Assembly: GCA_000310025.1 (NCBI GenBank)
Contig: FN649736.1
Span: 3,469,835-3,533,834 of the forward strand
DNA from: Ectocarpus siliculosus
Taxonomy: Eukaryota > Sar > Phaeophyceae > Ectocarpales > Ectocarpaceae
Direction: 5' to 3'
DNA length: 64,000 bases
The notes below the pieces were generated by a model. It was given only the letters and a program-made list of their open reading frames with translations, was not told where the DNA came from and searched no databases. Positions within the stretch are counted from its first letter, which is position 1, and every line of letters begins with the position of its first letter. Shown piece by piece: positions 614 to 16,480 of this stretch. Position numbers and translations under genes: made by a program.

Positions 614-2391
614 CGGATATCGATCACTTCACGGGCGAATCGTATCGAATCTATTAATTATTGAATCGATATCCAAAACTATCTATCGACGATGTCTTGT
701 CGATATTTTGAAAAATCGTATCGAACTTTTTTTCCGGACCAATATCCAACACTGCCAGAGTCAAGAGTCAAAAGAGGAGTCAAAAGGAACCTCACTTGTT
801 CGAATTCCGAATTCCGAGTTCCGAGTTGTAGTCCGAGTAGTTCCGAGCAGCTGGTTCCGAGTTCTCGAGTTCTCGATGGTTTCGACTAATCAAATTCAAG
901 CCGCCCAAGGAGAAACTGCCAAAATCGTTTGAGTTTTTTTTTTCACGTTCTCCGACCACGCGCGGCGCAATAGCAATGCACGCATGCACGCCTGGTGTTG
1001 TTGGCGACAGCGGTTTGCAAGCCCACAGTAGATACAGCGCAAGCACCTTAGGGTACGCCTCGTCTCTGCGGTGAAGTGGTCGAAATGGGGAAGAGGAAAC
1101 GGTGTCCTACTTGACACGTGTACACAGGAGGAGCTTTGGCACGGCGTGTGAAAGGGTAAGACACTCGTACCTGCACCTACACACCGCAGTATTACGACGC
1201 CGTTCGGGAGACTGTGGCAGCAGCGGCGTCAAGATATCTGGGGGTGGTGCGTACACATTTGACAACTACTCGGTTAGCCACGGTGGGACGGGAGGCGAAC
1301 CGATGGGATGCGGGGCCAGCGTTTTTGCCGCGACGACGTCGTCACCACGAAGTCCTCAGAAGCTAAAAGCGCAGGGGACGGCCTGGAAGGTACTACTGTA
1401 TCATACAGTAGCAGACTAGTCGTACACGAATCATCATGCGGCTTGTTGTCTTGCGGAAACCTACATGCATGTATCCTGCTGTCTGTGTACATTGAAGTAA
1501 CTGCGCTTCAGGCCATACTCGATGTTGTTGCATTTGTATTTTAGACTGGTGGCATACTGGAGCGGACACCCACAACGTTACGCAGTCGGAGCTCTGTACG
1601 GTCGTGGCCGGCCCAACCCATCTGAACCCTCTCACCACGGCCAACGCGGACGGCATGGTGGCCTGGAACGGGGCGAGAACGGGGTTGTGTCGCTTTTTTA
1701 AAAATCTCGGAATGCAGAACAGAGAGGGGACACTGGAGAATATTTTAATCGACCGCTCGAACCAACACTCGACCACTCAAAGGGCGTAAGACCCCGTACA
1801 TTGGAAGTTACACAACAGACCGTAAAAAACTGTACTGACCGGTCGATCATCTCTTGAGGCGGGAACTTCAACGCTGTTGAACCTACTACCCGTTTTCGGG
1901 TCTATCGATTTGTGGGGAGCTCTGATGAAGATCGCACAGAACCCTGCCTTACGTTAGGCTAGACAACTATTTAACGATAATGTGTAGCACGACGGTCTGT
2001 GTACGTGAAAAACAATCCGGACACATCGCCCCCCGCCCCCCGCCCCGGGAGGGCAATTTGGATATCTGTTTATTTAGGAATTAGTATAGGGGGCTTCGTT
2101 CACGAAAGTAAGTCATTGACCCCTGTTGGGCGAAGTGGCTTACGCTGTGCAGCGAGGGACGCTGTCCTCTCGAGCTGCTGGCGTTGTTCATGCGAGGTGT
2201 AGGTAGGGTAAACACAGAGTGATTTTTAATATCTGTTAGTGCACTGCCGCCCTCAGCGGTCTGTGGTGTTGAAACTGGGGACTATGTTATCCCAGGAACA
2301 GCTGATAAAAAAGGACCATGTATTGTATATATTCGTCACGCAAGCCCCTCAGGCAAGCTGGTATTCGACACGCAAGCCCCTCAGGCAAGTG

Positions 2392-2419
2392 CCGGGAGCA
2401 CACCGCTGTGTGCTCCCGG
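2392..2419. repeat. Perfect 11-bp hairpin behind a duplicated 21-bp word
   Basis: CCGGGAGCACA and TGTGCTCCCGG are exact inverse complements around a 6-base loop. Just upstream a 21-bp word beginning CACGCAAGCCCCTCAGGC occurs twice (about 2338-2358 and 2370-2390). No T-run follows, so this does not look like a terminator. Its role is unknown. Confidence 0.7.
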
Positions 2420-3056
2420 GGGCCCCGCACTTGGACCACAACCGCATACATACCCTCACACCCATACTTCCCATACGCGTATCCCCCACAGAGGATGCAC
2501 AGATCGGACTCATATCCAAGTACCACAAACAATATCCACACTCAGACGCCCAAGCTGTCTTCACGTGACGGTTACAGACAGACTTGGAAACATGCCTTCA
2601 CAATACTGCACAGAACCCATGCAGTAGAACCAGTCGTTCTTGTACACAAATACTCCAACAACCCCCCTATTGCGGAGGAGGGGTTCCACGGTGCCCCTTA
2701 CGAAACTATGAGAAATTTGAGTCCCACTACCCCAAATCACTCCCCCCCCCCGCCCCTCACGGACCCCGATTTTCGATTACTGTAGTAGGTCTTTGTGTCT
2801 TGATCTTTTTATATTCACATATACGACTGCATAGAAGTTTTTACTTTCGTATTCTAACATACTTTCTTTCCCATCAAATGTTGGCACTGTCATTCACGAG
2901 AAACATTATCCTTCTGGTCGTGCAAAGCAAGTTGCCTTTACAAAAGTCTAGCCATTCACATCATAAGCCAGGAGGTGGGTATGGAGGCCCACGCCCGCGG
3001 GATATCATGGAATGGCCCATGAACCCACGGCCGATTTTCATGGACATCCTATGGAA

Positions 3057-4976
3057 CTGTGGGGCTTTGACATTTTGTTGGGTTTTCTCATCGTCATCGG
3101 GTCAAGACTGACCCAGTCATGACCCGATCATGACCCGATCATGACCCGATCATGACTGAATCATGACTCGGTCATGACTCACAAGTTAGTCACGACCCGG
3201 GCAAGACTGGGTTGTGACCCGATCAGCATGGAGTCATGAACCATGACCGCTCATGACTTGATCACGATATGGAGCCATTACGGTACGTCGATCGTGGTCG
3301 AGGTGATGACTAGGCCATGACCGAGTCATGCTCAGAGAATTACCTGGACTTGACCGAGTCACTCGTGACCGGGTCGTGAACTGATCATTTCTCGACCATG
3401 ACATGGTTATGGTTAGGTCATGGCCAGTTCATGACTGAGTCATGACCCAGTCATGACTTGGCCGTGAACTGGTTATGGTTAGGTCATGCACCCACACCCT
3501 CGACAGGCCGAAATGTTGCCAGTCTCGAAGGCCTGTTCTGGTCTGCCACAGCATTTTGTGTTCTACCCCTTCAACCGGCAACCAGTTGATCAGCAATCTA
3601 TATGCAGTTCTGAACTCCTAAACAATAGATTCTCTGCTTTGGCAGGGGCATGAAACCGGTTAAAGCGCTAGCGCTATCCCTATCCCTACCCACACCAAAG
3701 GTACAAGGTTGGCGCTGGGTGGTGGTCTACTAGTAGGTAGGTGTGCCAGCGTTGGCGCTAGGTTGGTGTTGAAGGGATAGTTTACGTTGATTGCTGTTTT
3801 ACCCCCCTTACTTGGCAGTATAAATGAGGAGGGTTTCGTAGATCGTATCTCGTGTCGATTAGGGGGGATGTTTGGGGGTGCTCGACGGAGTACTGATCTA
3901 CGGAGCCTCCGGGAGATTACGTGGATGATAAAATGGATGGGTGGGCATGATATCGTAGGAATGACAAACCGGGGCCCTCTTTGCGGGTCTGTCACTCGTC
4001 GATAGTCTACCTTATTTCTTTGTCGGCTTCTGATCGTGTCATCACCGGGTCATGACAGACGATCAGGTCGATGTTTGGGCCACGAAGGGTGATGACATGG
4101 CCATGTCTCGGTCATGGTCCACTCATCGCGACCGGTCATGACGCCGTATGACCGCATCATGGCTGGACTAGGACCCGGTCATGATCCGACAGCCTGGCCG
4201 AGACTTCCTGGAAAAGTGCAACGGGGATTGTTGGGTTAGCTAGTGGTCGTGATCACGACTCATTGATCATATCATCATGGTTTCGGCCATGCCCCGGTTC
4301 TGTGACCCGATCATGATCGGATCATGACCGAGTCGTGACCGGGTCATGAGTTAGTTTGCTGTTTCTCACTTTCGCAGGAATATGCGGCCAGGCTGCTGGA
4401 TCATTACCCAGTCATGTTGCAGCTAGAAGTTTTCCCATCAACAACAAACTAGCGCCAATGCCGGCACAGAAATCTAGTCCGTATCCACCCAGCGCCAACC
4501 TAAAACCTATCGCAGGTGTGGGAATAGGGTTAGGGTTAGCGTTAGGTTTTTTGGCCAATTTCATGCCCCTCCCAAATGAGATAACCTATTGTTTAGGACC
4601 ATCAGGATTGCATCGATCGTAAATCGATGTGTTGCCGGTTGAAGGAACAGCACACGATGCTTTTGGAGACCAGGGCAGGGGTTCAAAACCGAGACCATGG
4701 CAGTTTACCCTTTTTTTCTTGCATGGGGTGTGTTCGGCCTGTCAAAGGTGTGGGTGCATGGCTTATTTGCACCCGCAACAAAGTCTTAGCTCCGTCGCTA
4801 TGACCGAGTCATGACCGAGCCATGACCGAGTCATGACCCTGTCATAATCGAAGTCATGATAGAGGTCATGATAGAGGTCATGGGCCGGTAATGACCGTCT
4901 CGACCGAGTCATGATCGGGTCATGATCGAGTCATGACTGAGACATGATCAAAACCCCAGTAATGTCAAAGCCCCCC
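3057..4976. mobile_element. Large imperfect palindrome (foldback-type element) with TCATGA-word arrays
   Basis: The left arm (about 3057-3785) is repeated in reverse complement as the right arm (about 4432-4976). Landmarks pair in order from outside in: GGGCTTTGACATT with AATGTCAAAGCCCC, GCACCCACACC..GACAGGCCGAA with its complement near 4725-4755, CTTCAACCGGCAAC with GTTGCCGGTTGAAG, CCTAAACAATAG with CTATTGTTTAGG, and GGTTGGCGCTGGGTGG with CCACCCAGCGCCAACC. Both arms (3100-3485, 4800-4950) and the loop (4020-4360) carry dense arrays of variants of TCATGAC, itself built on a 6-bp palindrome. No transposase is visible. Weaker ATGG-rich similarity outside (2970-3056, 5183-5330) may extend the arms. 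A foldback/MITE-like DNA element is the best reading; an origin by inverted duplication is the alternative. Confidence 0.65.
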
Positions 4977-5772
4977 ACTTTGCGTGCCATTCGGTCGGTG
5001 TTTGACGTGCCATGCTGCGCTTATAATGCACAGCAGACGAATATGGACGAATCCTTTCGTTGCAGTGGACCTGCTGCCACTGTCAACGGCGATCGAAGTT
5101 GTCCGACGGGGCGGGCCTCTCAAGCCAGAGAAAAAGTATGCGCGTTCTCCTAAACACACGTGGCTGCGTCTCGCCTGATTTTCCATGCAATCTCACTGCA
5201 TCCCGGGGCAACCCATAGTTTTCCATGGCACTCCATCGTCAAGCCGTAGATTCCATCTTGAAGTCCCACGAGTGCCCATGTTCTACGGAGCGCCATAGAG
5301 GTCGATGGGCCGCCATGGGCCTCCAATGTCCCTTAGGATGTCGCCACCGGGCTAGACTAGACTGTGGCGACTTTCCTTACCCGTTATCCCGGGGGTATTC
5401 AAACGAAAGTTGGAAATCCCCTTTTGTGATCGGCCGATGCCCATTGAAAAGTCGAGAGGCAAAAATGCGGGTTTAATTGAGGCGGAAAGGACGATGAATG
5501 ACCGAGGCTTTCCTAATAGACACCGAAATTAGAGAGGGGAATGCTACCGCAGGCACTGCGTTGAATAGGGGGGCTCATTATCACTACGTGAACTGTTTTC
5601 TTTTTGTTCTTGTTTGTTGTTGTCGTCACTGGCTGTTGGCGTCGTACAGTCAACTTGCCCTTGTGATCCTCGTTGTGGGGGACCTTCCCTCGTGACGCCT
5701 ACGGGCAGTGATTATTCTCACGCCTTTCCATCTCGCTACTCTATGGTGTAGATCGTTCCAGGAATAGACGGG
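4977..5772. other. Spacer before the kinase gene
   Basis: No coding exon is evident. 5183-5330 is rich in CCATGG-like words related to 2970-3056. A CAG at 5759-5761 directly before the first coding exon could be a splice acceptor, so an untranslated or further coding exon may lie upstream. Confidence 0.4.
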
Positions 5773-8700
5773 ATGAAGAAAGAATTAAGCGACGACAAGA
5801 GCCTCACGGGTGGAGATCCGCGAAAACTGGAAATGCGAGCCATACTGGAAGACCCGATCGGGCAGAAGTACATCGGCCAGTTCGCCAAGAAAGTCATGAC
5901 ACAGGTGAAATATCATAACACCAACTGACCAACGCCAGTCGCACCCCTTCGGGCACCTCACATGTACGAATCTTCGTAAATCCCTACAAGAACATAATCA
6001 CATCAGAAGTGAAGCCGAAATTGTTGCTTGCATGCCGTCCAAAATTAACTAGAGCGGCCCCGCTACAGGCGGGCACGGGTAGGGGGAAATCCTGTGTGCA
6101 GGGAGGGCCAAGACCACGTCTCTCCATTGTCGGCACTTAAACCGTGCTGAAGGAATGGAATGACGAAGGTCTTATCACCGCGCACGTTTTGCTTTGCATG
6201 AATAGAGCACTCTCCTCGTACGTTTCCGTATGTTGTCCCCCCCCCTGGTCTCATCCCGTGCCCGCAACCCCTGTGACGTGTGGAATAGATTGCCGAATGC
6301 ACTACTCACTCACCCAACCGCGATCATTCGGTTGATTCAGTCACTCACACCCGATGGGTGCGTTCCAATTAACTTCTATGTGCGTCGGACAGTCACCCCC
6401 CCCCGATGCTATCTACGTGTGCGCACACCCGCAGGAGTCATTCTATGCGTGGGTTGACATCCAGGAGTTCCGTAGCATCCCGACAGGGGACTATCGGAGG
6501 GGAAAGTCGATGCACATCTACCAGAAGTACATCCGAGAGGGCGCCGTCTTGCAGGCAAGATTTTCAGCAGTTTGGTCCGCCTTATAGTCTAAGCATCTTC
6601 TAGCAAAAAGAGTGGACCATAGAACTCACGAGCAATTCATCAGCATTTTGTAGCTGGAGGCGCAGATCGAAAAAAATAGATACTAAACTCCAGGGGACGA
6701 AGATGAACACCGTATTGTTTCCCGCACATCTACAGGACACACAAAGAAACAATTGAACAACGAAACTGCGTGCGTTTGTTGTATTTTGCGTCCCGCGCAA
6801 TACCAATTGTTTAAGCACCGGTGCTTACGTGTCTGTTTAGAGGCTGTGTTCCTACCTTGACAGTGACTTTTGGCTCGCCCACTGCACTTCCCTCTGTAAG
6901 TAGTTTCCTACGCACCTATGCTCAGAAGTGCATACGGCAGCGAAGAGCTCCAAACACGAAGGTACAATCAAAATGAGACTTTCTTTTCTACGAACTCAAC
7001 TCGGCACTCATCATAACACTAGAGGAGAAACTTGGACCGTCAACCAACCACCGGAGCCCGCCTGGTATGCTACAGCGATCCATGAGCAACAGGTCACCCC
7101 GTTCATTTTCTTGCGTGTTTGACCGGACCCGAGGAGTTTCTGGAGAGCCACTGTCGCCAAGGGAGCACAATCGGAAAGCCGCATTCCCCCTTTCCTTGCG
7201 GTTCCACGTGCTCAGCTATCGTGGCACTCCAAGTCCAGCCCATATTATGGGCAACTGCTTTTTACGACGTTCCTGCAGCTGTGGACGTCGATAAACACTC
7301 AACACCACACGCGACCCAAACTCGTACGCTCGCAGGTGGGGAGCATCCCTGCGGAAGAGCGAGCAAAGATCAAGCACATAATCGACGCCGGGGTGGTGGA
7401 CAAAGCCGGGAACAAGAGCGGCATCTCGACGGACATGTTCGACTTCTTCCGGAAGGCGGTGTTCAAGGAGATGTTCTACAACACCTTCCAGAGGTTCTCC
7501 GCCTCTCCCGAGTACGCCCAAATGCACGCCGACATCAAGAACGCCTACAACAAGGCGAGTGATTGGCCGGGTCGTTGGTTCGCTGTTCGGGTAGGGAGAA
7601 ATTGGTGTGGTTGGTTGAGTCGGTTCCAATGAGTTTTGGGTTACTTCAGGTGGGGTTTGATGATTGGATTTGTTGGTCTCGACGGCTCTGGCTTGAATGG
7701 GTGGGATTGAATTAGATGAAGAGAACGAAGTTAGATTGTGGGCATTTCCTTTTCGAGCGTTTTTCGGCGAAGGGACTTTGACGGGCATTATATTACGGAA
7801 TCTGACCGATACGAATACACGCTTTGAAGTACTGTTGTTTGTCGGCGTTGTCTTTTAGCGGTTGCGGAAAAATAAACGTTGTGCTCTCTGCATATTGCCG
7901 TGATCACGCAGGTATGTCCAGACGACTTCCTGTACATCGAGAGGATCGGCGAGGGAGGGTTCGGTCGGGTGGTGCATGTCAAGAAGAAGACCACCCAGTC
8001 GCACTACGCGATGAAGATCCAGCTCAAGACAGCGCTGCTCGACACGTTCAACGATGACCCTACCCGAATTGACCATGAGAGGTGCACGTCGTTTGCGTTG
8101 TTTGTACACTTTTTTTACTGACAATACCCTTCTGCTTCCAGGGGGTGAGATAGTCAAGACTATTACTCAGGCCTATAGGAGACCCCATGCGGTGCAAATG
8201 CAATATTCGGGTGGCATAAGAGCCTCAGAGGCAGTACAAGTGTTATAACAATGTGCTCGGGGCACAAGAATACATCTAGGCTTCTTTGTTTTCCTTATAT
8301 CTCCACATAAATGCGACCAAGCTGTTGTCTATCGTTATCATGAGGCGGAAACTAGAAAGGAATTCACCTTACGATGTGGTACGTATAACGACAATCCACC
8401 TTGCAATGTGGTGCGGATAACGACAATCCACCTTCCAATGGATATCGACGTCACCATTGCATCTTATTTACCTTCAATATTGTGTGCGGCTGTCGTTGAC
8501 TTGCAAGTAAGGCACCAAAAACTATCTTGAGCAGCCCAATGACGTGAGCCCCCCACCCCTCGCCCCCTCCTCACACGGGCTCCGATCCCCTCGCCGTCGG
8601 GACGGTGTTCCAAAGGCGCGTACTGTCGGTGACACATCACCCGTTTATCGTGGGCATGGACTACGCTTTTCAAACACCGGAGTTAGGGATTATGTGTCTC

Positions 8701-11700
8701 GAGCTTGTCACCGGGGGGGATCTTCAGGTAATACAGAGCAAGGCATCGAATGAGATGAAACGGCGACTTGATCTCTTGTTACGTCTCCAGCTTGCCACCG
8801 GTGGGGAAACCCTACCTGCGCTCTTTCCGGATGAGAAGCGTGTGGTGAATCAACAAGCGTCATGCCGCGTCAACGAAACTATTGTTCGCTGTCGAATTCC
8901 TTTTCGCTCTCTTTGACCCTTTTTTGGTCAGGACATCACCAAATAACATGAACCGGAGGGGATTCGATGAGGTCCCGCAAAGGAATCACGGGATGACGTG
9001 TAGCCACATTGATTGTCTGAGATTCGGATGTCGCTCAGTGCTTCGTTGTTGTACCTCAAGTAGGACAAGAATGGCACTTTTGACTAAACGTTTCCCTTGA
9101 AGGGATAGAGATGCAACGTTTCTACATGACATCAAGGGCGCAATACCCGGCGCGCTGGTACAATTGTCAGTAATGCGTATTCCATGAATGTCTTTCGCCG
9201 ATTCAGAACGAAGAATAAGAGAACGATTCAGGTCGGACGTCGATCGCCGACCAACCCTTACATCTGTTCAGTCGTGGCTCCGATATTCGAGGGTGGTGTG
9301 ACAAAGGTCCTCGACCCTCCTACATCGGAGCCCCCTCGTGTGCCGGAAAACGAGAGCATCCAACTATAGAATAGCGGGTGGAGTCGGTGACAACCGATTT
9401 CGACCCTCTTGTATCGGAGGCCCTTCTTATAAGGCACCCTCTTATAACGGAGCCACGACTGTAACAGACCGCGCTTCTGCCGTTTCACCATACACGACTG
9501 GTGCTGCTGTGCATCCACACAGGAGGCGATCGATACGGCCCCGGAGGGAAGGATCGAAGCGAAACGGGTTCAGTTCTACTCGGCGGAAATCATTCTGGCG
9601 CTGGTGCACTTGCACGACCTCGGGCTCATGTACCGGGATCTCAAGGTACCAAAGATGCGCTGTTGTTGCTCGCAACGCATTCTGCTGGTGTGTTTGGACT
9701 GTACATTCCTTCGAGTTTGCCCCGAGTAGGTTGAGTTATCGGAGACTGTTTGAACAGATGTCTCTAGTTTTCCGGTACCCTCGTGAAACAGTGACATTTC
9801 GACCCTAGCAGAAAGCCACACCGCAAAGAAAGTCGCACTCTGAGCCGTGGTGGTCGACTTAGTTCCAAATTAGTTCCTTTTTTCCTCCGTGTCCTTCCCA
9901 CAGCCGTGCAACGTGCTGCTCATGGGGGACGGGCATGTCAAGTTGGCGGATATGGGCGGGGTGGCGGAATTTGCAGACGGCACCTGTTTAGAGACAAACA
10001 AGGTGGGTTCAGCTGGTCAGAGGAAGCATACCAACCTTCGGTGTAGAAGAAGGTAGTTCTCTAAAAAGGGATACAACGCAATAAGACATGTTTGTGTTGG
10101 TACAAAAAAAGTGGTATGTACTTTATTCATCTTGCAGCCTAGGTTATAGAAGAGAGAACGAAATGAAGTGGCGGAGGTTTCGAGGAAAAACTGTGGTCCA
10201 GATACATGAGCAGGTCGGCATTGATTAGTACCTACAAGACGAAGTTGGACGACGTTCATGCTTCGTATGCGGCGGTTCTATTCGATACAGTTATGTCAAC
10301 GCAGACTCTCATCAACAGATATTCGAACTTGTGTCCTCTCTCATCCTATGGGGGCCCTGAATTGTTCTAGCTTGTGTCCTATCTCATCCTTTGAGGGCTT
10401 TGAATGTATATGTGTCGAACGAACAGCCGGTCGAGCATCGATTTATGTAAGTGTTCCATCTTTCGAAACGAATCAGGACAAGAATCCCTTCACGGGGACG
10501 GAGATAGGGTCGTTGCCGCAAAGTAAGTCCTCGGAGGACGGGCCTCCAACCCTCAACAACAAGCACCGCCGACGGAGTATCATGGGCACGCAAGGGTAAG
10601 CCGGCAAACGTCGCAATTCCGCTTCGGGTCTCCAAGGCATGCTAGCATGACACTAATACAGGCGGAAGCATACACTTTTTGTCGGGAATGAAGGGTTTGA
10701 TTTTTCGCGCTTCGTGTCGTTGCCTTCAAACGGCATGCATGGGAGGGCAAGCCGCAGCGAAAGTCTTAGTTCATGTTCCTACATTTTGCATCGCCACCAC
10801 CGCCACAATCACAACAACAACGCGGCGACATGGCCGCGTTTCTTTCTCGTACCTCGTTCAGCTATGGTCTCCAATGGCTCTGTATCTCGCTCCCTGTTTC
10901 TTGCTTCGCTTTCTCTTCGTTGCGCGAACGGGCGGCGAGTAGCTACATGGCGCCGGAGATGGTAATCCTTCCAAAGCAGCCTCGATCGGTCAGGGTGGGC
11001 TACTCAAACGTGAGAAACATCAAGCCGCACTGTATCTGACAGATGAGAACCTTGCTGGACTATAATTCTCGCCGATGAGATATTGTCGCATAGCTGTCAT
11101 GCACGGAGGAACTACGGCGTGCGTTCGTGATCAAACTACCGTCCGGTGTAGGATTTCGGAACAAACAATCCAAGAAACATCACATGAAACAAACAGCCAA
11201 GGATTGAACAAACGCGCACATACGCCGTATTTATCGCCATCTGATGTGAGAAAAGCAGCGCAGCATGGGTCAATGACTGGCAGGTTCCAAATGTTCCTAC
11301 AACACGATTTTCTTTGAGTAAGACGAAGAAGACCTGCCATGAACACAGCGAGAGGATTTCCCGCCGAATGCAACGGGAAGACGTTGATTCTCCTTGTCCC
11401 CAAACCAAAAATAACATGAAAAGCGCACATTCACGATCGACGTATTGGTTTCTGTGTCGCCCAACATTAGCTCTTGGTCCTGAGTGCTTGACTATCATCT
11501 GTGTTTTAGGCGTAACGAGCGCGCGATCGAGATTCGATGGGAAAGTGGTCGTTCAGCATTCTATGACCTTTACCAAGCAACCCATTGGTGTAGCCGGCGA
11601 GCACCCTGTCGCCGTCGCCATCCTTTCCCCTAAACGCTTGCCGTTGTTCGAAATGCTTCTCCTTTGCCCGATATACACAGGCCGTGGACTACTGGTCCTT

Positions 11701-14936: not shown

Positions 14937-15911
14937 GCCCCCCTACTCGGTACTAGATACGATCTACTTAATATTTTCCTCTTATCGCGGAACTTGGCCG
15001 TAACAACCTCAAATCTCAATTCTAGACAATCCATCGTCCCAATTCGAAACAAATCTCCCAAGATAACGTTGTCCTCCGCAATCATTGATTTCCCAATATA
15101 ACTCCATCATCCGAAATCCATTGAATCTTCAAATGTCGAATCGTTTTCTTTGATCCATATCCCCTCAAGACGGTACTCTCAATACGTCTCAAGATTTCAA
15201 AACACAACGGTTATCCTCTGCAAATATCTTCATGACATCAGCATTCCTGCAGAAATGTTACGCCACAGATCACAAGCTTCGCACAAAACCAGGTTTCAAC
15301 TGATTGACCAACGGACAATGAGCATTCGGAACGCACATTACGCCCCAACCATTGCTTATCAATACATGTCAAATCCTTCCTCCAGAATAGATATAAATTC
15401 TAAAAATAGTCTCTACTAACAACGAGTAAAGAACCCATTCGTCGGGAAACATCAGGGAAAATCTTCACCAGTAGTTGCGGCTTTAGCATATCAACGAAAA
15501 CATATCCAACAGCCCCCCTGCTGTGACTTTCCCGGGAAATGCAAACATATAATTGGGTAGAATATCACTCCGCCACGTAAAACGCGAAGAAATATCTGAA
15601 CATTCCAAAACACATTCTTCAATGAAAACCATAAAATACCCACGTTGTTTTCAGCGGAATTCAAGCAACCCCTCGTGTTGTGAATCACGAGGCACCATAG
15701 AAAACCATGAGGCTTACACCCATGGCCCACGGGCCCTTTCCAGTAACCAGGAGCCATCATTCCTAAAACATGTGCAATGCACGAAACCTTCTCGTGCTGC
15801 TACAAGGATCATGGCACAACACTCCCCCCCCACTATTCTTGATAGCAGCACGGCAATAACGTTGTTCACACGCTGCACAAGCACCAATTACCCACAAAGA
15901 CGAAGACAGCG

Positions 15912-16480
15912 GCCCACAGGCCGAAAACACGGAAAGAACGGTAGTTCCGAGCACCGAAAACACACCGAAGCACAAATATAGTGGCCTTCAGGCCGAAAGC
16001 ACAGAAATAACGGTGGTTCCGAGCACCGAAAACAGCAACACAAATATAGCGGCCCGCAGGCCGAAAACGCAGAAATAACGGTGGTTCCGAGCACCGAAAA
16101 CACACCGAAAGAAAAAAATAGCGGCACGCCGGCCGAAAGCACGAAAAGAACGGCGGTCCCGAGCACAGAAAACACACCGAAGCACAAATATAGTGGCCTT
16201 CAGGCCGAAAGCACAGAAATAACGGTGGTTCCGAGCACCGAAAACAGCAACACAAATATAGCGGCCCGCAGGCCGAAAACGCAGAAATAACGGTGGTTCC
16301 GAGCACCGAAAACACACCGAAAGAAAAAAATAGCGGCACGCCGGCCGAAAACACGGAAAGAACGGTGGTCCCGAGCACCGAAAACACACCGAAAGAAAAA
16401 CACACCGGCCCTCAGGCCAAAAACACAGAAAGAACTGGGGTTCAGAACATCGAAAATGCACCGAAAGAAAAATGTGCAGA
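15912..16480. repeat. Tandem array of 66-73 bp units with a 212-bp higher-order period
   Basis: About eight units share CAGGCCGAAA..AC..AAA..AACGGTGGTTCCGAGCACCGAAAAC split over two blocks. A three-unit block starting at 15985 is repeated almost exactly from 16197 (shift 212 bp), so units were duplicated in groups. The plus frame gives a hydrophilic Thr/Pro/Glu/Lys repeat (PSTENTPKEK), but no gene signals surround it. The array lies inside the LTR fossil. Confidence 0.85.

What the first reader, a model, noticed from the sequence alone, without database searches (positions are those of the whole stretch)
2970..5330. Large palindrome built from iterated TCATGA words
Two arms of 550-730 bp pair across a 650-bp loop, and both arms and loop are packed with variants of a word that is itself a palindrome. 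The result is a nested palindrome: the long arms fold, and every short word can fold or pair with any other. No transposase or known family is visible. It could be a foldback element, or a dense binding array for a dimeric protein.
Basis: partly seen in the sequence, partly recalled or inferred. Interest (0 to 1): 0.7.

Follow-up and report, generated by a model that had tools for sequence, protein, structure and literature searches.

The report
Recombinant foldback transposon with palindromic arrays
The palindrome is best read as an old jumping-gene copy without a visible transposase, from a dispersed family whose ends are packed with an 11-base word that reads the same on both strands; this copy looks like two family members fused head to head, so the kind of element is known and the family looks new.

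Summary
It is one copy of a dispersed family in a 189-Mb, apparently eukaryotic genome. Thirteen other loci (two share flanks) show two ends: a common core TGACATTnTTGGGTT with different outer 7-mers, GGGGCTT-like (E) and CAATGAG-like (E'); both ends exceed background in 6 of 13, at least one in 12. Subterminal TCATGA arrays have an 11-bp, strand-symmetric unit. Ten of the 11 non-miniature copies keep D(-)-B(+). The window copy instead reads E-array-D(-)-S-B(+)-C(+)-D(+)-array-E. I read it as a head-to-head recombinant of a non-autonomous foldback DNA transposon. The design resembles Tm1 (Mutator/Phantom foldback of root-knot nematodes). Against a firm assignment: no transposase appeared in 15 ORFs scanned, no empty site was found, and target-site duplications are not significant (p about 0.1). 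That the arrays bind transposase is analogy with Galileo. New member of a known kind.

The parts
3061..3067 (+). left outer 7-mer GGGGCTT (E end)
   Evidence: alignment; leave-one-out score 19.6 against best background 17.8 in window 10001-64000
3068..3086 (+). shared inverted-repeat core TGACATTTTGTTGGGTTTT
3109..3480 (.). left TCATGA array, 11-bp period (best stretch 3109-3178, 6.4 units)
   Evidence: tandem repeat scan, self-comparison
3485..3777 (-). D module, inverted copy (matches at 3485-3512 and 3532-3777)
   Evidence: 93% and 72% to the window's D(+)
3800..4040 (.). S spacer, found in this copy only among the 14 compared; about 3808-3929 is a separate dispersed repeat (80%)
4055..4216 (+). 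B module
   Evidence: 69-83% pieces in 10 of 13 other copies
4265..4416 (+). C module (array plus a non-array 3' part TTTGCTGTTTCTCACTTTCGCAGGAAT); in the opposite direction to the C pieces that follow B in 8 other copies
   Evidence: up to 86% over more than 100 bases
4423..4772 (+). D module, direct copy, related to a separate MITE-like repeat found alone elsewhere
4797..4949 (.). right TCATGA array
4950..4967 (-). right shared inverted-repeat core (TGACATTACTGGGGTTTT on the minus strand)
4968..4974 (-). right outer 7-mer, also GGGGCTT (E), where the other copies have a CAATGAG-like end
   Evidence: leave-one-out score 26.0

Best explanation
Window 3061-4974 is an old, apparently non-autonomous foldback-type DNA transposon copy. 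Shown: it belongs to a dispersed family with defined ends (different outer 7-mers, shared inner inverted repeat, subterminal TCATGA arrays), and this copy has two ends of the same type and a second, inverted D module. Inferred: it arose by head-to-head recombination, or template switching during repair, between two family members, with loss of the E' ends. Inferred: a transposase supplied in trans, most likely Mutator-type (Phantom-like), bound the arrays as a multimer, cut at the outer ends and moved the ancestral copies. The 11-bp spacing puts successive palindromic sites on about the same face of the helix.
For: Dispersed pieces, mostly 66-89% alike (capped lists). Two ends at 13 other loci (L009 and L015 share flanks, so at most 12 insertions); similarity ends at the termini. 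Leave-one-out scores against the best background in 54 kb of window (E 17.8, E' 15.2): both ends above in 6 of 13 (L009, L014, L015, L042, L049, L057), at least one in 12, neither in L041; both E ends of W above (19.6, 26.0). Flanks: of 11 joined flanks, 6 (W, L010, L011, L012, L014, L029) matched only themselves (40 of 138 candidates scored). D(-) then B(+) in 10 of the 11 non-miniature copies, not L042; C(-) after B in 8 (in L010, L030 and L032 not reaching its non-array part). W alone has E at both ends and D in both directions. W's D arms are 74.3% alike, no closer than to copies elsewhere (W right to L014 81.3%, W left to L014 76.9%), so not a recent duplication. In 13 elements, 45 of 164 nearest TCATGA spacings are 11, 11 are 22; spacer consensus YYSRR. 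Of 22 exact three-unit matches per strand in the genome, 20 lie at 12 loci found; reversed control 0. MULE domains exist in this genome, 45 matches. Tm1 has asymmetric 7-bp ends outside the inverted repeat, tandem subterminal units and mostly 9-bp duplications (passages of PMC3169594).
Against: No transposase: Pfam found none in 15 ORFs from 8 sources; other ORFs were not scanned. By eye no MULE match is closer than about 21 kb to a family locus; the one MULE locus read (L058, 4 kb) has no array, no inverted repeat and no end above background. Duplications are not established: 29 of 90 positions match in a fixed 9-mer register, permutation p 0.097; maximum over eight registers p 0.10; the best cases (L010 7/9, L014 6/9; L049 6/8) are not in one register, and L049 is 0/9 in that of the first two. 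No empty site was found. End calls are weak in L010, L013, L032, L041 (E') and L011, L012, L030, L041 (E). Trees of D and E ends have low support.
Confidence: 0.8

Rival explanations
1. The mobiliser is not a Mutator-like transposase but one of another superfamily with long repetitive ends, such as P (as in Galileo) or hAT; foldback ends evolve convergently.
For: Galileo, a P-superfamily element, has foldback-like ends with repeated transposase sites (abstract; passages). No duplication length is proven here.
Against: Asymmetric outer 7-mers are described for Tm1 and, there, for other Mutator-like elements, and MULE domains are present in this genome. Other transposase families were not searched for.
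Confidence: 0.35
2. A host array of binding sites for a dimeric DNA-binding protein (regulatory or architectural), with the palindrome as by-product.
For: Strand-symmetric unit in about one helical turn; the copy lies about 3.6 kb upstream of an AGC-kinase-like exon.
Against: Arrays occur inside elements with defined ends at unrelated sites; copies are strongly diverged and vary in unit number.
Confidence: 0.07
3. A locus making long hairpin RNA for small-RNA silencing.
For: Very strong predicted folding, z about -28 from 12 shuffles.
Against: Other copies fold too, less strongly (L014 z -16, L011 z -7), as any foldback would; the D arms are only 72% alike; no Rfam family matched the window; no expression data on hand.
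Confidence: 0.05
4. Same kind of element, different history: two separate E/E' elements lay head to head and later lost their inner ends by deletion, with no recombination event.
For: The S spacer between the halves contains another dispersed repeat; the arms are no closer to each other than to other copies.
Against: B(+) and C(+)D(+) are joined with no E' end and no B(-) recognised between them; both routes give nearly the same product, so this is a variant of the best explanation rather than an alternative to it.
Confidence: 0.3

Closest known systems
Tm1 Mutator/Foldback family of Meloidogyne (PMC3169594; outline and passages seen)
   Same: Different 7-bp motifs at the two ends outside the inverted repeat, a short conserved inner motif, variable tandem short units in the ends, MITE-like and larger classes, some copies with nested elements.
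   Different: End and unit sequences differ (about 14-bp unit there, 11-bp strand-symmetric TCATGA unit here). Tm1 has clear, mostly 9-bp duplications and a transposase-bearing class; here neither was shown and copies are more diverged.
Galileo (P superfamily, Drosophila; PMC3573991 passages; PMC3688188 outline and abstract)
   Same: Long internally repetitive ends; recombinant and chimeric copies, the chimeric ones flanked by non-matching sequences; additional transposase-binding sites identified in the tandem repeats of its ends.
   Different: P-type transposase and 7-bp duplications, neither tested here; sequences were not compared.
Tetris (Drosophila virilis; PMC4079207, passages)
   Same: Non-autonomous foldback with tandem repeats in its ends, no transposase copy found, assigned by its authors to Mutator from 8-10 bp duplications.
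   Different: TIR-220 repeats that grew into satellite arrays; here 11-bp units, with no long satellite seen in the loci read.

Membership tests
Foldback (FB-type) DNA transposon | long, internally repetitive inverted ends of variable length | tested here: met
Foldback (FB-type) DNA transposon | dispersed copies with precise ends in unrelated flanks | tested here: met
   6 of 11 flank pairs matched only themselves, the others lie in duplications or repeats
Foldback (FB-type) DNA transposon | target-site duplication or empty site | tested here: inconclusive
   29/90 matches in a fixed 9-mer register, p 0.097; no empty site
Mutator superfamily (MULE/Phantom) | MULE transposase within an element bearing these ends | tested here: inconclusive
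   45 MULE matches in the genome, none seen inside a copy; 15 ORFs scanned without a transposase; 1 MULE locus read, ends not matching
Mutator superfamily (MULE/Phantom) | 8-10 bp duplications | tested here: inconclusive
Tm1 | asymmetric 7-bp motifs outside the inverted repeat | tested here: met
   analogous layout; exact GGGGCTT at 6 of 15 E ends (two of them in W), exact CAATGAG at 6 of 13 E' ends, the rest degenerate
Tm1 | Tm1 motif sequences (A1 CGGTTAA, A2 CCTACCC, about 14-bp motif C) | tested here: not met
   E/E' consensus and 11-bp unit differ (motifs)
P superfamily (Galileo type) | P-type transposase with THAP domain and 7-bp duplications | not tested
   no P or THAP search was run

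The most novel reading that the evidence does not exclude
Because the 11-bp unit (TCATGA YYSRR) is palindromic at both of its centres, the array has no direction. A transposase multimer could therefore load on an end in either orientation, and head-to-head recombinants with two like ends, such as this one, could stay mobile. If so, a strand-symmetric binding array would be a route by which ordinary elements turn into large palindromic foldbacks.
Probability: 0.12. Interest if true: 0.6.

Novelty: new member of a known kind. Interest (0 to 1): 0.38.

Why it matters
It adds an apparently undescribed foldback family with Tm1-like asymmetric ends in an unnamed, apparently eukaryotic genome, and one copy that seems to catch head-to-head recombination between foldback elements. 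The unit that reads the same on both strands gives a testable idea of why foldback ends grow and recombine. It is not a new class of system.

Tried and rejected
Set aside: simple satellite (20 of 22 exact three-unit matches lie at family loci; those loci were partly found through their arrays, and of the 12, nine have at least one recognised end while L031, L039 and L046 have internal module matches only). Virus-borne array: 0 matches in viral contigs. Prokaryote genomes: 4 single matches, not followed. Rfam: no match in the window. Outer flanks as part of the palindrome: no. Younger miniature copies: a search with L057's element found none close, best other match 86% over 71 bases. Window ORFs: 10 of the 47 of at least 150 aa were scanned in Pfam, none matched. 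Target-site duplications: an early scan of 720 registers over 10 copies, L009 and L015 both counted, gave z up to 4.07; the fixed-register permutation test, L015 dropped, gave p 0.097. In one search a 10-mer register gave 39 of 100, but it was outside the permutation test. No duplication is claimed. A motif test for two kinds of E end did not separate W's left end; its resemblance to L010 and L013 (TTCTCAT) is by eye. Dropped before the 13-locus count, having one end or none recognised: L017, L029, L031, L033/L052, L034-L040, L043-L048, L050, L051, L053-L056. Host identity was not established: two rRNA searches failed; a brown alga is only my guess. Paper searches listed no TCATGA foldback family; only the listed titles and abstract starts were seen apart from the papers cited, and the library lacks most subscription journals and holds no repeat database. 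After re-checking, confidence in the best explanation went from 0.82 to 0.80, because one search showed several end calls to be weak.

Full report
What is there. The window lies in a 189,456,909-base genome of 492 contigs, C11:3469835-3533834. Inverted-repeat search and self-BLAST confirm two arms, 3061-3777 and 4433-4974, around about 655 bases. Both the array part and the D part of the arms exceed all 100 shuffles; the outer flanks do not. TCATGA occurs 24 times in the element against 13 in the rest of the window. As a single strand the element folds with 319 of 718 pairs bridging the arms; 12 shuffles put the energy at z about -28 (RNA parameters).

The word. In 13 elements (W and 12 others, L042 left out) there are 177 TCATGA words. 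Of 164 nearest spacings 45 are 11, 11 are 22, 8 are 23 and 6 are 12; the spacer consensus is pyrimidine-pyrimidine-S-purine-purine, each position held by about 75-91%. The unit TCATGA-YYSRR is therefore self-complementary at both centres. An exact search for three units found 22 places per strand in the genome and 0 for the reversed pattern. Twenty lie at 12 loci found, six of the 20 in this copy; the other two have unrelated spacers. The tighter YYSRR pattern gave 0 hits in viral contigs and 4 stretches in prokaryote genomes.

A family. Searching the genome with the window element returned 122 matching pieces (best 40 of 386 candidates scored); further searches used the right end, a second copy and probes of both ends. 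I fetched 50 loci by region. Ends were found by eye and by a weight matrix. The matrix was built from those ends, so I re-scored each end with itself left out. The best chance scores in window 10001-64000 are 17.8 (E) and 15.2 (E'). Eleven of 15 E ends and 9 of 13 E' ends exceed them. Both ends do so in L009, L014, L015, L042, L049 and L057; one end does in L010, L011, L012, L013, L030 and L032; neither in L041. The weaker E' ends of L010, L013, L032 and L041 rest on the inner part (near AGCTCGTGATCGTGATCATGA) in the alignment. L009 and L015 share flanks and are one duplicated insertion. All 13 were assigned one E end (consensus GGGGCTTTGACATTnTTGGGTTTT) and one E' end (TCAATGAGTGACATTnTTGGGTTAGCTCGTGATCGTGATCATG). 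The outer 7-mers are exact at 6 of 15 E ends and 6 of 13 E' ends. Outside, similarity stops. Of 11 joined flank pairs, W, L010, L011, L012, L014 and L029 matched only themselves; L009/L015 and L013 have duplicated flanks, L041 lies by a repeat, and L030's left flank has one 78% relative.

The modules. The modules are cut from W, so W matches them at 100% by construction. In E-to-E' orientation D(-) is followed by B(+) in L009, L010, L011, L012, L013, L014, L015, L030, L032 and L041. C(-) pieces follow B in eight of these (not L013, L041), reaching C's non-array part in L009, L011, L012, L014 and L015. L009, L015 and L030 have an extra short B(+) piece, and L032 a B(-) piece, before D. L042 has D(-) and C(-) but no B; L049 and L057 have only array. 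The window copy reads E-array-D(-)-S-B(+)-C(+)-D(+)-array-E and is the only one of the 14 with two E ends. D also occurs without TCATGA arrays as a repeat of its own: 6 of 11 solo copies tested show inverted ends of 28-61 bases, and L013 carries such a D end inside its element. D is thus probably an older insertion carried along by the family.

How the window copy arose. Its left half follows the standard order through B(+); its right half is the mirror image C(+)-D(+)-array-E without B(-). The simplest account is fusion of two elements with their E' ends facing, followed by loss of those ends. D arms are 74.3% alike; W right D is 81.3% and W left D 76.9% to L014, so the arms are not a recent duplication. 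Tree support is low, so I do not name the parents. Galileo shows recombinant and chimeric copies, the chimeric ones with non-matching flanks (passages); the window copy also lacks matching flanks.

Mobilisation. No transposase was found in 15 ORFs from L036, L048, L042, L047, L033, L046, L009 and the window element; the only hit was one sub-threshold YnhH-like match in L046. Several of those ORFs may lie outside the elements, and other ORFs were not scanned. The genome has 45 MULE-domain matches, none closer than about 21 kb to a family locus by eye. One MULE locus was read in 4 kb: no array, no inverted repeat, no end above background. Single copies suggest duplications (L010 AACGAACA/AACGAAAA, L014, L049), but they do not share one register and are not significant together (p 0.097). 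The Mutator assignment rests on architecture: Tm1 has different 7-bp motifs outside the inverted repeat and variable tandem units, and the authors of Tetris also placed a transposase-less foldback in Mutator, from 8-10 bp duplications. That the arrays bind transposase is an analogy with Galileo (abstract).

Known or not. In the Ectocarpus transposon survey I read section 5; it lists one MuDR family, many unclassified DNA families and nested insertions fixed in many copies of giant elements, and the listing counts 0 uses of 'foldback' in the whole text. Whether this genome is of that lineage is unknown. I could not compare with repeat databases. My paper searches listed no TCATGA foldback family. 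I rate it a new member of a known kind, with one unusual copy.

Noticed in passing
window 8596-8745 (+): Exon-like stretch similar to AGC kinases (S6 kinase, PKC, Akt; best phmmer E 1.6e-4), though Pfam gave no match at 0.01. An upstream open stretch near 5773-5909 looked like an RGS-type exon by eye but matched nothing in Pfam or the PDB.
   Followed up: partly
window 2223-2624; L036 2285-2773 (-); L037 2489-2902 (-): Very similar open stretches (...PPSAVCGVETGDYVIPGTAD...), seen by reading translations only, occur beside this element and beside an E-end copy at L036 and its near-duplicate L037; probably a dispersed repeat.
   Followed up: no
window 15908-16473: Tandem array of 72/212-bp A-rich units, which may explain part of the strong AT skew at 16-18 kb; the opposite skew at 30-34 kb is unexplained.
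   Followed up: no
L016, L018-L026, L028: Solo D repeat, a MITE-like family with ends near TGCACCCA..ATAAGCCATGCACCCACACC (inverted ends seen in 6 of 11) and repeated CCAACCTAGCACC words.
   Followed up: partly
G000 C6:1027840, C1:2787893 and others: 28 of 45 MULE-domain matches score 52.1-52.6 bits, 25 of them in a 233-aa frame, suggesting a recently active MULE family.
   Followed up: no
L024 3517-4221 and 4530-5211: A different and seemingly much younger inverted repeat of about 0.7 kb, 92.6% alike.
   Followed up: no
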